From: Rhodanobacter sp. T12-5
GTDB taxonomy: Bacteria > Pseudomonadota > Gammaproteobacteria > Xanthomonadales > Rhodanobacteraceae
Assembly (NCBI RefSeq): GCF_008329435.1
Contig: NZ_NPKN01000007.1
Coordinates: forward strand, 1 to 64,000
Length of the DNA: 64,000 bases
Direction of reading: 5' to 3'
Position numbers and translations under genes: made by a program. Below, piece after piece: positions 1 through 3,695 of the stretch (position 1 is its first letter; the number at the start of each line of letters is the position of its first letter). The notes below the pieces were generated by a model. It was not told the DNA's origin, made no database searches, and saw only the letters and a program-made list of their open reading frames with translations.

Positions 1-2
1 AG

Positions 3-122
3 GCACGGTCCGACGTCTTTGACTACATCGAACGCTTCCACAATCCCCGAATGCAACGCAGAATCGAGGTTCGGGATCGGGCCTTCACGGCCTTAACTCA
101 ACTGTCCGCGAAAACGGGGTAG
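3..122 (+). pseudogene. C-terminal tail of an IS3-family transposase (fragment)
   Basis: Frame 3 reads an open segment from the window edge to a TAG at 120-122. It contains the stretch SDVFDYIERFHNPR, the well-known C-terminal end of IS3-family OrfB (DDE integrase type) transposases, followed by a basic segment ending SAKTG. The rest of the gene lies left of the window, or has been lost. The tail lies directly against, and partly overlaps on the opposite strand, the broken end of the neighbouring IS110-type transposase. That suggests one element inserted into or recombined with the other. I call it a fragment because only about 39 codons are visible; whether the full gene is intact outside the window cannot be judged. 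Confidence 0.75.
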
Positions 123-900
123 AACCCCTGGAGTGCTGAGTCGGCACCACACCCAGCCAGGCGGCCAGTTGCCGTCCATTCCGAAACTCCCGTGCGTTGC
201 CGATGCTGGCGACCATCGCATCGACGGTGATCGGCCCCACGCCGACAATCGCGCCGATCCGCATGCACCGCACGTCCTGTCGCGCGTGAGCGTCGATGCG
301 TGCACCGCACGCGTCGATGGCCGCGTGCAACTGCGCCCAGTGGGCGCTGAGGTCGTGCAGCAACTCGATGAACTCGCCAGGCAGTGCCGCCGCCCCATCG
401 AGATCCACCAGCACGCGGCGCAGAGCCGCATCGCTTTTCGCCACCACGATGCCGAACTCGGCCAGCAGGCCGCGCAAGCGGTTGCCGACCGCCAGCGACT
501 CGGTCTTGTAGCCCTCGCGCACCCGATGCCACGCCAGCCGCGCCTGCTGATCGACATCCTTGACCGGCACGAAGCGCATGTTGCCCTGCCGGGCCGCGGT
601 GGCGATCGCCTCGGCGTCGTTGCGATCGTTCTTGGCCGTGCGGCTCTTGCGGAACGGGGTGACGAACTGCGCCGCCATCAGGCGCGGCTGCAGACCGTAC
701 TCCAGGCAACGGCGCCCCCAATGATGCGCCCCACTGCACGCCTCCATCGCCACCACCGTGCCGGGCGGCCGCTGGGCCAGCCACAGCGCAAACGCCTCGC
801 GTCCCAGATCCCGCCGGCCCAGCACGTGGCCGGCCGCATCCATCTCACACACCGAAAACACGCTCTTCGCCAAGTCCACGCCAATGGTTATAGTGCTCAT
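85..900 (-). pseudogene. IS110/IS1111-family transposase, C-terminally truncated
   Basis: The 271-residue reading frame has the IS110 N-terminal RuvC-like DEDD domain: VDLAKSVF with D9, AMEACSGAHHW with E53, and NDRNDAEAIA with D92 and D95. It then enters the C-terminal Transposase_20 domain (GVGPITVDAMVASIG, QLAAWLGVVPTQHS). Family members run to about 330-340 residues and continue with a SGGK-type motif and an RGD segment. Here the similarity ends at TQHS and the last dozen residues are translated from the antisense of the IS3 tail. The catalytic part of the C-terminal domain is therefore missing and the protein is probably inactive. The start ATG at 900 is the family's usual position. The element is a remnant that can no longer move by itself. 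Confidence 0.85.
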
Positions 901-981
901 GGAGACTTCCTCTTCTGCTGACGGTTGTGTCGCAACACCATCATGGCCCTCGAGGCCGAAAGGGGAGGAAGTCTCTTTTTA
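128..981 (-). mobile_element. Truncated IS110/IS1111-type insertion sequence lying in an attC site
   Basis: The element reads on the minus strand. Its upstream end abuts a sequence at 982-1029 that matches the 3' part of an integron attC site, at the point where the R'' box should begin. A sub-group called IS1111-attC is known to target attC sites, and the position fits that behaviour. The downstream end is missing: transposase similarity stops near position 128, where IS3-derived sequence begins. In IS1111 elements the guide (bridge/seeker) RNA lies at the transposase 3' side, so that part is probably lost here. The exact ends are estimates, because IS110 elements lack clear terminal repeats and duplications. 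Confidence 0.7.
902..975. other. Perfect 11-bp inverted repeat enclosing smaller hairpins, upstream of the IS110 transposase
   Basis: GAGACTTCCTC at 902-912 is the exact reverse complement of GAGGAAGTCTC at 965-975. The 52-nt interval holds two small stems, around 926-936 (GTTG/CAAC) and 946-957 (GGCC/GGCC). The region is the non-coding 5' end of the IS. Structured non-coding ends of IS110 elements can encode the guide RNA (IS110 group) or carry subterminal inverted repeats used in circle formation (IS1111 group). Which applies here is unknown. Confidence 0.45.
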
Positions 982-1029
982 CTCGTTCAAGGCGGACGGC
1001 TTCGCCGCCGCTTAACTCCAGCGTTAGAT
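982..1029 (+). other. Partial attC recombination site (R'' box replaced by the IS end)
   Basis: From CTCGTTC at 982 to the R' core box GTTAGAT at 1023-1029, this stretch aligns nearly base for base with the complete attC at 1383-1439. It keeps the imperfect stem around GGCGGACGG and the GCTTAACT segment. The R'' box expected just upstream is replaced by the pyrimidine-rich end of the IS. Cassette recombination would cut after G1023, so the next cassette starts at 1024. Confidence 0.8.
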
Positions 1030-1032
1030 CCC

Positions 1033-1437
1033 ATGAAATCATCTCGGCTCGGCAAACTAGAAGCACAACTTTCGGCCGCCGAGACGTCGCTGTTCGACTT
1101 GCTTGCGCAGGCGCTTCCTCGCGTAGTTCACTCCGGCGAGATGCTCTTCTTCAACCCCACCTTTCTGCCGGACACTATCCAGCCTCATTGGCTACCTCAA
1201 GAGAGCGAGGAGCTCCTGTCCCTCGCCAGCGACTCAGTGTCATTACGTGAAGAGCTGGGCTTGCCCGTAGTTGGCACGGTTGGCCAGCTTTACCTTTCTG
1301 CGTGCAGCGAATCGGCAAACCACGCCAATGGCAATCGGCGCGGGCCTCGGCAGCTAGCAACGTGGTTGCTTGGCGAGCTGAGGTCTAACATCTCGTTCGA
1401 GGCGGACGGCTACGCCGCCGCTCAACTTAAGCGTTAG
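1033..1437 (+). CDS. Integron cassette protein of unknown function (134 aa)
   Basis: The ATG at 1033 lies only nine bases inside the cassette boundary at 1023/1024, which is typical of gene cassettes. The stop TAG at 1435-1437 lies inside the R' box of the following attC, so the last residues (SFEADGYAAAQLKR) are encoded by the recombination site itself, another common cassette trait. The frame stays open upstream to 925, but that part runs through the IS and the attC, so I reject it. I do not recognise the protein. It has a predicted helical N-terminus with a Leu-rich segment (SLFDLLAQALPRVV), no signal peptide and no membrane span. No promoter is visible close to it; expression may depend on upstream cassettes or the IS. 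Confidence 0.7.
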   Translation: MKSSRLGKLEAQLSAAETSLFDLLAQALPRVVHSGEMLFFNPTFLPDTIQPHWLPQESEELLSLASDSVSLREELGLPVVGTVGQLYLSACSESANHANGNRRGPRQLATWLLGELRSNISFEADGYAAAQLKR

Positions 1438-1439
1438 GC
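1383..1439 (+). other. Complete integron attC site (57 bp)
   Basis: It begins with R'' GTCTAAC (1383-1389, consensus RYYYAAC) and ends with R' GTTAGGC (1433-1439, consensus GTTRRRY). Between them lies an imperfect palindrome, TTCGAGGCGGACGG pairing with CCGCCGCTCAA. The layout strongly resembles the aadA-type attC. Two near-identical attC copies in a row suggest a chromosomal integron array. No further attC is visible up to about 3.9 kb, so the array appears to end here. The 1440-1528 stretch after it shows nothing recognisable. Confidence 0.88.
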
Positions 1440-1528
1440 GGCGCAGCGTTTCATCCTGCTTCAAATGGTCGTTGGCGGCCGCGTTACGTTCACGGCTTCT
1501 CTCACCATCAGGGCAGCTTCGGCGGGTT

Positions 1529-2146
1529 CTACCCCGTCTTCTTGCGCAACCCCTCGGCCTCCAGCGCCGCTTGCACCGCGGGGCGCTCCGCCACGCGCTG
1601 CTGGAATGCCATCAGCGCGGTGAATCCGGACAGATCCAGCTCGACGTGCCTGGCCCAGTTGGTGACCGTGAAAAGGTAGGCGTCCGCTGCGGTGAAATGG
1701 TCGCCCAGCAGCCACGGCTGCTTCGCCAGCACGTCTTCGATCAACTGGTAGCGCTTGAGCAGGTATGCCTTGCGCTCGGCGCGGGTGGCCTCGGGCGTGT
1801 CGGGCTTGAACAACGGGCTGTAGGTCTTGTGGATCTCGGAGTTGATGTAGCCCAGCATTTCCTGCAGGCGGTAGCGCGCCAGCGTGCCGTTGGCGGGCGC
1901 CAGGCCGCTCTCGGGCTTGAGGTCGGCCAAGTACTGCACGATCGCCGGACCTTCGGTCAGCAGTTCGCCATTGTCCAGCGCCAGCGCCGGCACGTAGCCC
2001 TTCGGGTTGACCTGCCAGAAATCCGCGCCGCCCTCGGTGCGTTTGGCCTTGCCGTCGACCTTCTCCAGCGACAGCGCGATGCCGGCTTCCAGCGCCACGA
2101 TGTGCGGCGACAACGAGCAGGCGCCCGCCGAGTAATAGAGCTTCAT
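1529..2146 (-). CDS. gstA: Beta-class glutathione S-transferase
   Basis: The 205-residue protein is full length for the bacterial beta class. Its thioredoxin-like N-terminal domain (about 1-80) has the active-site Cys10 in GACSLSPH, the cis-Pro segment GYVPAL near residue 52 and the Glu-containing LLTEGPAIVQYL. The all-helical C-terminal domain follows, with His106 in SEIHKTYSP, a residue conserved in this class. The resemblance to E. coli GstA is close along its length. It conjugates glutathione to electrophiles in the cytoplasm. It is transcribed away from the HxlR-type regulator at 2316, from which it is 169 bp distant. Such pairs often form a regulator/target unit for electrophile or oxidative stress; that link is inferred from arrangement only. 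Confidence 0.9.
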   Translation of the reverse strand: MKLYYSAGACSLSPHIVALEAGIALSLEKVDGKAKRTEGGADFWQVNPKGYVPALALDNGELLTEGPAIVQYLADLKPESGLAPANGTLARYRLQEMLGYINSEIHKTYSPLFKPDTPEATRAERKAYLLKRYQLIEDVLAKQPWLLGDHFTAADAYLFTVTNWARHVELDLSGFTALMAFQQRVAERPAVQAALEAEGLRKKTG

Positions 2147-2240
2147 GCGTTTTCTCCGTGATGGGGAAGTGGGGAAGAACCACCGCCGCGGCTACACGCA
2201 CCACAACGATGCCGGCATGCTAGCCATCATGGTTACTTAT

Positions 2241-2282
2241 GGATACCACCTAACCAGCGGTTAGCGTAAAAATGTAGTATCC
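2241..2282. promoter_or_regulatory. Candidate operator between gstA and the HxlR regulator
   Basis: CTAACC-AGC-GGTTAG at 2250-2264 is a perfect 6-3-6 palindrome, flanked by GGATAC (2241-2246) and GTATCC (2277-2282), which are also reverse complements. The region sits between the two divergent starts and is AT-richer than its surroundings. A dimeric winged-helix regulator such as HxlR could bind here and control both genes. This is inference from symmetry and position. Confidence 0.5.
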
Positions 2283-2315
2283 GTCGGGTTACCGCACTCT
2301 CCCGAGGCAATTCCG

Positions 2316-2750
2316 ATGGGCCTGCCCGTACGCAAGAGCAAGGTCGCCGCGCCGCCGGCCTGCCCGCTCACCGAAAGCCTCGCGCTGCTGCGCGGTGCAT
2401 GGGCGCCGAACGTGGTCTGGTACCTGAGCGCCGAGCCGCGCCGCTTCGGCGAACTGCGTCACGACATCCCGCGCATCTCCGCGCGCGTGTTGAGCGCGCG
2501 GCTGCGCGAGCTGGAATCGCGCGGGCTGGTGACGCGGCGCGTGCTGGCCACCTCGCCGCCGTCGGCCGAGTACGCGCTTACGCCGCTCGGCCGCGAACTG
2601 CTGCCGGCGATCCAGGCGCTGGCCAGCGTGGGCCGGAAACTGATCGAGGAATGGGAGGAAGGCCGATCGAAACGTGCGTCCGCAGCCGCACGCACGCGCA
2701 CGAAACCTGCCGTGACCGGCCGCCGGAAACATCCGACGACCAGCCCGTGA
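2316..2750 (+). CDS. HxlR-family winged-helix transcriptional regulator
   Basis: The 144-residue protein has the HxlR domain over about residues 16-110: CPLTESLALLRGAW, a wing and recognition region (RFGELRHDIPRISARVLS), and the typical RLRELESRGLVTR. The Cys in the N-terminal CP motif (residue 16) is the redox-sensing position in several family members that respond to quinones or electrophiles. The C-terminus is a basic tail rich in Lys and Arg (about 115-144) that is not part of the domain. It is divergent from gstA with a palindromic region between them, so regulation of gstA and of itself is likely but unproven. Confidence 0.85.
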   Translation: MGLPVRKSKVAAPPACPLTESLALLRGAWAPNVVWYLSAEPRRFGELRHDIPRISARVLSARLRELESRGLVTRRVLATSPPSAEYALTPLGRELLPAIQALASVGRKLIEEWEEGRSKRASAAARTRTKPAVTGRRKHPTTSP

Positions 2751-2756
2751 GCCCGC

Positions 2757-3695
2757 TCAGACTTCGTCCGAACCTTCGTTGACACCCTCGAACAGGAAGG
2801 TCGACAAATAGCGTTCGCCGGTATCGGGCAGCATCGCCAGCAGCACCGAACCGGCGGGCGCGTCCTTTGCCACGTCGAGCGCGGCGGCCAGCGTGGCGCC
2901 GGAAGAGATACCGGTGAAGATGCCTTCGCGTTGCGCCAGTGCGCGCGAGGTGTCGCGGGCCAGCACGTCATCGATAAGCACGATGCGGTCGACCACCTTC
3001 GGGTTCAGCACGGCCGGCACGAAGTCCGGGGTCCAGCCCTGGATCTTGTGCGGCTGCCACTCCTTGCCGGAGAGCAACGCGGCACCCGTCGGCTCGGTGG
3101 CGATGACCTGCACTTCCGGGCGGGCCACTTTCAGCACCTCGCCGACACCGGTCAGCGTGCCGCCGGTACCCCAGCCGCTGACGAAGTAATCCAGCCGGCG
3201 TCCGGCGAAGTCGCGCAGGATTTCCGGCCCGGTGGTCTGTCGGTGATACGCCGGGTTGGCAGGGTTTTCGAATTGGTTGGTGAAGAACCAGCCATGCTTC
3301 TGCGCCAGTTCCACGGCCTTCTCCACCATGCCGGTGCCACGGGCTGCACCGGGCGTCAGCACGACCTTGCCGCCGTAGGCGCGGATCAGCTTGCGTCGTT
3401 CGATCGAGAACGTGTCCGACATCACCGCCACGAACGGATAGCCGCGTGCGGCGCAGACGGCGGCCAGCGCCACGCCGGTGTTGCCCGAGGTGGCTTCGAT
3501 CACGGTCTGGCCGGGCTTCAGCGTGCCGCGCTGTTCGGCGTCGAGGATGATCGCCAGCGCGAGGCGGTCCTTCACCGAGCCGGCCGGGTTGAACGCCTCC
3601 ACCTTCACGTAGAGTTCGACGTGTTTCGGCGCCAACTGATGGAGACGGACGATCGGCGTGTTGCCGATGGTGTCGAGGATGCTGTCGTGGATCAT
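2757..3695 (-). CDS. cysK: Cysteine synthase (O-acetylserine sulfhydrylase)
   Basis: A pyridoxal-phosphate enzyme making L-cysteine from O-acetylserine and sulfide. From the ATG at 3695 it is 312 residues. Lys42 in NPAGSVKDR binds PLP, SGNTG binds the substrate carboxylate, and GTGGTLTG binds the cofactor phosphate. The end, LPDTGERYLST, is characteristic of the family. The frame is open to 3749, but the extra residues have no family resemblance, and the start at 3695 gives the usual DSILDTIGNTPIV beginning. CysK versus CysM subtype cannot be settled by eye; the ERYLST ending favours CysK. It converges on the HxlR gene, with only six bases between the two stops. Confidence 0.9.
   Translation of the reverse strand: MIHDSILDTIGNTPIVRLHQLAPKHVELYVKVEAFNPAGSVKDRLALAIILDAEQRGTLKPGQTVIEATSGNTGVALAAVCAARGYPFVAVMSDTFSIERRKLIRAYGGKVVLTPGAARGTGMVEKAVELAQKHGWFFTNQFENPANPAYHRQTTGPEILRDFAGRRLDYFVSGWGTGGTLTGVGEVLKVARPEVQVIATEPTGAALLSGKEWQPHKIQGWTPDFVPAVLNPKVVDRIVLIDDVLARDTSRALAQREGIFTGISSGATLAAALDVAKDAPAGSVLLAMLPDTGERYLSTFLFEGVNEGSDEV

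What the first reader, a model, noticed from the sequence alone, without database searches (positions are those of the whole stretch)
1..1439. End of a chromosomal integron array with an IS1111-type element inside an attC site
Two attC-like sites about 410 bp apart share nearly the same sequence, with a cassette gene between them. The upstream site is cut exactly where the R'' box should start by the end of an IS110/IS1111-type element. IS1111-attC elements are known to target attC sites, and the fit is close. The neighbouring sequence is an IS3 tail, so this is a cassette array edge shaped by mobile elements. The cassette and its two sites are unlikely to be chance: both core boxes match their consensus.
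Basis: partly seen in the sequence, partly recalled or inferred. Interest (0 to 1): 0.7.

Follow-up and report, generated by a model that had tools for sequence, protein, structure and literature searches.

The report
Integron array end with broken IS
This is the far end of a second, integrase-less gene-cassette array in a bacterium related to Rhodanobacter, in which a dead transposon fragment sits inside one cassette recombination site; each piece is of a known kind, but the array seems to have kept its own integration site although the integrase gene lies elsewhere in the genome.

Summary
A covariance model from 18 attC sites outside the window finds exactly two sites in 64 kb: 1376-1437, and 969-1027 without its 1L box. 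DNA at 128-981 is the left part of an IS1111-family element (tnp residues 1-257), cut at 127/128 by the right end of an IS3-type element. Of 80 relatives examined, 29 share its left end; 25 of these fit a short attC flank pattern and 17 have a model hit across the end. In 24 of 29 the region after tnp carries two target-matching stretches in the published IS1111 seekRNA order. The window copy has lost that region and its right end.

The array most likely belongs to a locus between purB and a GST gene, neighbours in 20 of the 24 congeners with that GST. The purB side, on contig C19, has an intI stub, an attI and two attC sites; the genome's only intI above cut-off is on C12. The purB attI core equals the C12 one (53/53); the flank does not (111/183). 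So: a split, partly decayed chromosomal integron, a new member of known kinds. That IntI serves the purB attI in trans is possible, unproved.

The parts
1..127 (+). Right end of an IS3-type element: last 39 codons of its ORF (stop 120-122) and the terminal repeat ending GGGGTAGAACCC
Evidence: identical over 127-129 bp to two other right ends, C17:251013-251141 and C19:206683-206809; three identical left ends at C19:1, C5:1 and the end of C13.
128..981 (-). Left part of an IS1111-family element; tnp codons 1-257 (130-900); the rest of tnp, the noncoding region and the right end are missing
   Evidence: Pfam PF01548, PF02371; 18 relatives with both ends found measure about 1492-1553 bp; the only match of this tnp in the genome
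967..975 (.). Subterminal repeat GGAAGTCTC of the IS left end; the element ends at 981 (TAAAAAG on its own strand)
   Evidence: same left end in 29 of 80 loci; right-end counterparts in 18 of 29, found with a pattern that asks for them
982..1029 (+). attC site 1 without its 1L box; 1R GTTAGAT at 1023-1029 kept
   Evidence: model R1 hit 969-1027, 65.5 bits, E 8.5e-15
1033..1437 (+). Cassette ORF, 134 codons, running into attC site 2; function unknown
   Evidence: no Pfam match; against the arrays fetched, tblastn matched only its C-terminal, mostly attC-encoded, part
1383..1439 (+). attC site 2, complete: 1L GTCTAAC 1383-1389, 1R GTTAGGC 1433-1439
   Evidence: model R1 hit 1376-1437, 79.7 bits, E 1.5e-18; fold
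1524..1537 (.). 14 bp equal to the IS3-type terminal repeat, overlapping the last codons of GST; possible scar of another such end
   Evidence: inverted repeat pair I2; GST ends in KTG here, in AAA, ALA or TVA in the 8 relatives looked at
1529..2146 (-). GST gene bounding the array on the right
   Evidence: Pfam GST_C, GST_N; next to and convergent with purB in 20 congeners

Best explanation
The window begins in the distal end of a cassette array of a chromosomal integron lying between purB and a GST gene in a Rhodanobacter-type genome. Inferred order: purB, stub of intI, attI, cassette 1, attC, cassette 2, attC, broken cassette 3, one IS3-type copy, left part of an IS1111 element, attC without 1L, cassette, complete attC, GST. 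The IS1111 element entered attC just inside the 1L box; RNA guidance is inferred from its relatives and from published IS1111 work. An IS3-type element now joins broken cassette 3 to the middle of the IS1111 element, so the DNA between was lost (inferred). The IS1111 copy cannot move on its own, the interrupted attC has no 1L box to pair with 1R, and the cassette beside it is probably locked in (inferred). The genome's only intI above cut-off is on another contig; whether it still acts on the purB attI is open.
For: attC sites by a model built without them. intI on C12. attI and intI stub at purB on C19. IS3-type left end at C19:1 and right end at C17:1. purB and GST neighbours and convergent in 20 of 24 congeners with an orthologous GST; attC sites in that interval in 3 of the 20 (G003, G001, G008) and behind purB in G014. 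IS relatives: left end shared by 29 of 80 loci, 25 of 29 with the flank pattern, 17 of 29 with a model hit across the end. Two target-matching stretches in the order given in PMC11187229 in 24 of 29, in 0 of 51 distant relatives and in 0 of 5800 shuffles.
Against: The join of C19:1 to C17:1 rests on synteny with other species: both contigs stop inside the IS3-type repeat, three identical left and three right ends exist, and no target duplication pairs them, so a rearrangement between copies in this strain is not excluded. In 17 of 20 purB-GST intervals there is no attC hit; 4 of 24 congeners do not have the two genes together, 2 of these only because they lie on different contigs. The fold test is not diagnostic.
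Confidence: 0.85

Rival explanations
1. The array is a plain CALIN, a dead relic with no remaining use of its attI or attC sites.
For: No intI above cut-off on C17 or beside purB; among the congeners no intI match (E up to 1e-60) lies on the purB contig within 200 kb of purB, though contig breaks could hide one; the IS1111 insertion, the truncation and the possible end scar look like decay; at purB of G009 and G047 only the intI stub, no attI core and no attC hit, is left.
Against: The purB attI core is 53/53 identical to the C12 core while the flank is 111/183; attC 2 is complete; cassette 2 behind purB has a 61% homologue in the C12 array.
Confidence: 0.4
2. The IS1111 fragment lies beside the attC by chance, not by attC targeting.
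For: Only one junction survives here; L059 has the same left end without an attC-like flank; 12 of 29 relatives have no model hit across the end at E up to 0.1.
Against: 25 of 29 relatives fit the flank pattern at the same base and orientation and three more miss it by one base; 17 of 29 have a model hit there although the model is of Rhodanobacter-type sites.
Confidence: 0.03
3. C17:1 is the end of another array, for example that on C8 or C12, brought next to GST by recombination between IS3-type copies.
For: Three identical IS3-type copies with flanks that do not pair; a diverged left end (85%) lies at C8:750895-751017, inside the C8 attC region.
Against: GST is the usual neighbour of purB and both gene ends face the gap; purB carries the proximal part of an array that stops at an IS3-type left end.
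Confidence: 0.1

Closest known systems
IS1111-attC group of insertion sequences (Tetu and Holmes 2008; Post and Hall 2009; seen only as citations, and in passages of papers that cite them)
   Same: IS1111-type DEDD transposase, subterminal repeats, entry at one end of attC in one orientation, noncoding region after tnp (the last two in relatives)
   Different: The 5000 best plasmid hits are all under 60% identical (capped). The clade enters beside 1L. Of 16 distant elements whose two flanks were printed, four (L117, L120, L125, L131) have an attC-like body on the other side by eye. The window copy is a fragment. No named member was compared.
seekRNA systems of ISKpn4 and ISPst6 (PMC11187229, abstract and passages seen)
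   Same: Top-strand complement 5' of the bottom-strand match in the region after tnp; both named elements target one end of attC
   Different: No RNA was measured; the stretches are read from sequence, in relatives only
CALIN, as in Xanthomonas (PMC12444791) and Shewanella (PMC9229058), passages seen
   Same: attC sites without adjacent intI; conserved chromosomal places in Xanthomonas; in the first paper's words such arrays can be mobilized in trans by a functional IntI
   Different: Here the intI-less array is inferred to have its own attI and the first codons of intI; the passages seen describe neither

Membership tests
Integron cassette array | attC sites with 1L and 1R boxes and an imperfect palindrome | tested here: met
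   two model hits, one complete and one without 1L
Integron cassette array | adjacent integron integrase gene | tested here: not met
   the only intI above cut-off lies on C12; at purB only a stub
Integron cassette array | attI at the proximal end | tested here: inconclusive
   attI behind purB on C19; its link to C17 is by synteny only
CALIN | at least two attC sites without a nearby intI | tested here: met
   two sites in the window, one of them broken; two on C19
IS1111 family | DEDD transposase | tested here: met
   PF01548, PF02371
IS1111 family | subterminal inverted repeats | tested here: inconclusive
   left one present; right one deleted here, found in 18 of 29 relatives by a pattern that asks for it
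IS1111 family | long noncoding region with seekRNA downstream of tnp | tested here: inconclusive
   deleted in the window; both target-matching stretches in 24 of 29 relatives
IS1111-attC group | insertion at a fixed place in attC, one orientation | tested here: met
   25 of 29 by flank pattern, 17 of 29 by model
IS1111-attC group | transposase within the published group's tree | not tested
   the 2008 founding paper is not held; no named member's sequence was compared

The most novel reading that the evidence does not exclude
One integron integrase serves more than one attI: the purB locus is an integron platform without integrase whose attI core is kept identical to the active one by use or exchange, giving the genome a second capture site; a third attI-like core lies on C8. 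(That IntI can move attC cassettes of integrase-less arrays in trans is already stated in print, PMC12444791; the second attI is the bold part.)
Probability: 0.35. Interest if true: 0.6.

Novelty: new member of a known kind. Interest (0 to 1): 0.38.

Why it matters
It shows how a chromosomal integron can be split over several loci and worn down by site-specific and ordinary insertion sequences. It also points to a clade of attC-entering IS1111 elements with readable guide stretches, and to a natural test of whether one integrase can feed a second attI elsewhere in the chromosome.

Tried and rejected
Rfam search of 1-3000 gave nothing up to E 0.1. Pairing the three IS3-type copies by target duplications failed: left flanks AAGC, CACG, CAAT against right flanks CTGG, CTAC, GCAT. 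attI exchange tested in G003: 49/53 within that genome, no better than 49/53 for the G000 purB attI against the G003 intI-linked attI, so the 53/53 signal rests on G000 alone. Folding energies of attC did not discriminate: a complete C12 site did not form the outer stem in its best fold, the top strand of site 2 did, and my C19 control (L018:556-606) was cut so short that it lacked most of its 1L box. Right ends of IS relatives were found with a pattern that itself asks for GTTA, so 18 of 29 is no independent evidence for the right flank. The patterns for the two target-matching stretches were written after looking; the shuffle and distant-relative controls were run afterwards (mononucleotide shuffles).

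Full report
Observation. The two attC-like repeats are real. To test them against chance I aligned 18 attC sites, none from the window, from this genome's other contigs and three congeners, built a covariance model and searched the 64 kb on both strands: two hits at E up to 1, both at the reported places. Site 2 (1383-1439) is complete. Site 1 lacks its 1L box and the two bases after it. Folding is weak evidence: the bottom strand of site 2 forms an outer stem, spacer and apical stem with extrahelical bases (z -1.34, 22 of 200 shuffles as good); the remnant of site 1 forms the apical stem and a small other hairpin (z -1.08, 24 of 200); but a complete C12 site did not form the outer stem in its best fold, and the top strand of site 2 folds as well as the bottom one.

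The IS. Of these 80, 29 (64-91% identical) have the left end TAAAAAG within 200 bases before tnp; the other 51 (42-55%) do not. By record title 22 of the 29 are Lysobacterales, 6 are MAGs named only Proteobacteria or Gammaproteobacteria, one is an Akkermansiaceae MAG (assignment of genera to the order is recalled). Of the 29, 25 fit the pattern T[TC]GANNGAG before the left end, L064, L068 and L090 miss it by one base, and L059 has no attC-like flank. Model R1, made from Rhodanobacter-type sites, has a hit across the left end in 17 of 29 at E up to 0.1 and none there in 12, of which L079 is at a locus end.

Guide stretches. In 18 of 29 a right end was found, by a pattern that presupposes GTTA; these elements measure about 1492-1553 bp; 15 of the 18 have a tnp frame of 347-365 codons, L067, L085 and L087 are broken earlier. 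After the tnp match, 26 of 29 have CTGACTAAC or CTGTCTAAC, complementary to the GTTAG side of the target, and 25 of 29 a stretch like GAATGAATGAG, matching the other side; 24 have both, always in this order, 59-64 nt apart. Both, 55-70 nt apart, occur in 0 of 5800 shuffled copies and 0 of the 51 distant relatives. The order is the one reported for IS1111 seekRNAs (PMC11187229, passages). That they guide insertion is inferred. For 16 of the 51 distant loci both flanks were printed: four (L117, L120, L125, L131) show an attC-like body on the right side, so they appear to use the other end of attC, while L092, L095 and L105 have GTTAGGC on the right, as in the window's clade (read by eye; 35 not examined).

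The window copy keeps 854 bp and ends at 127/128, where an IS3-type right end begins. It is the only match of this element in the genome, apart from the attC part and two 35-43 bp matches, so it is very unlikely to move on its own.

Which array. The only intI above the family cut-off is at C12:734706-735644, with attI and seven attC hits beside it. The start of C19, read toward the contig end, is purB, a stub of about 16 intI codons, attI, two cassettes each with attC, and a third cassette gene broken by an IS3-type left end. purB is my naming from sequence, by recall; no family search was run on it. Of 44 congeners searched, 24 have a GST at least 74% identical; purB and GST are neighbours and convergent in 20 of the 24, with gaps of 53-6465 bp. 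In G013 and G059 they lie on different contigs, in G056 about 48 kb and in G043 about 424 kb apart. Hence C19:1 and C17:1 most likely were the two sides of one IS3-type copy in one locus. In the 20 fetched intervals attC hits occur in G003, G001 and G008, not in the other 17. The intI stub is seen in the purB flank of G000, G003, G009, G013 and G047, and in a variant form in G014: 6 of 30 flanks examined (G000 included; a purB match was found in 44 of 45 genomes, and loci were returned for 30). An attI core is seen in G000, G003 and G014.

attI. The last 53 bp of the purB attI equal the C12 attI (53/53) while the columns before are 111/183 identical; in the other 14 pairs of the six sites compared the core is 83-94% identical. 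This fits exchange or shared selection by one IntI, but cores are conserved anyway and it is one genome's signal: G003 does not show it beyond the last bases. A third attI-like core lies on C8.

Organism. G016 and G019, of the same genus as the window, have matches at the same places as L063 and L066 (Dyella sp. S184) and L062 (a Rhodanobacter MAG), so the genus is Rhodanobacter or close to it (inference).

Literature. The search for Rhodanobacter with integron and attC gave one paper; the passage seen lists intI taxa. PMC12444791 states that CALIN arrays can be mobilized in trans by a functional IntI; PMC9229058 found no IS interrupting attC in Shewanella (passages). PMC11616780 reports ISPa21 of the IS1111 group in cassettes (passages). 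The founding IS1111-attC paper is not held. In the searches I saw no listing or passage that describes an intI-less array with its own attI; I did not read these papers in full and claim no more than that.

Verdict. Real, correctly read by the first stage, and ordinary in its parts; the array without integrase that seems to keep an attI is the point worth a test.

Noticed in passing
window 1524-1537: 14 bp equal to the IS3-type terminal repeat overlap the GST stop; the GST C-terminus differs here from the 8 relatives looked at.
   Followed up: partly
L014:13100-13150: The last attC of the C12 array is preceded by GGATGTCTTTTACTCG, like the IS1111 left end GGAAGTCTCTTTTTACTCG; perhaps a decayed second insertion.
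   Followed up: partly
L015:15770-15803: attI-like core at the start of the C8 array, again without intI there.
   Followed up: partly
L254-L273: In 20 intI regions fetched, DNA beyond intI is shared by two groups: ten regions (G009b, G052, G022, G060, G042, G043, G003, G001, G056, G044), and G000 with G021 and G014; the latter seems to hold an elongation-factor-like gene (by eye).
   Followed up: partly
L117, L120, L125, L131: Distant IS1111 elements appear to enter the other end of attC, so the place of entry seems to differ between clades (by eye).
   Followed up: partly
L018:655-846 and L014:13848-14072: Cassette 2 behind purB and a cassette of the C12 array encode homologous proteins, 61% identical over 75 residues.
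   Followed up: partly
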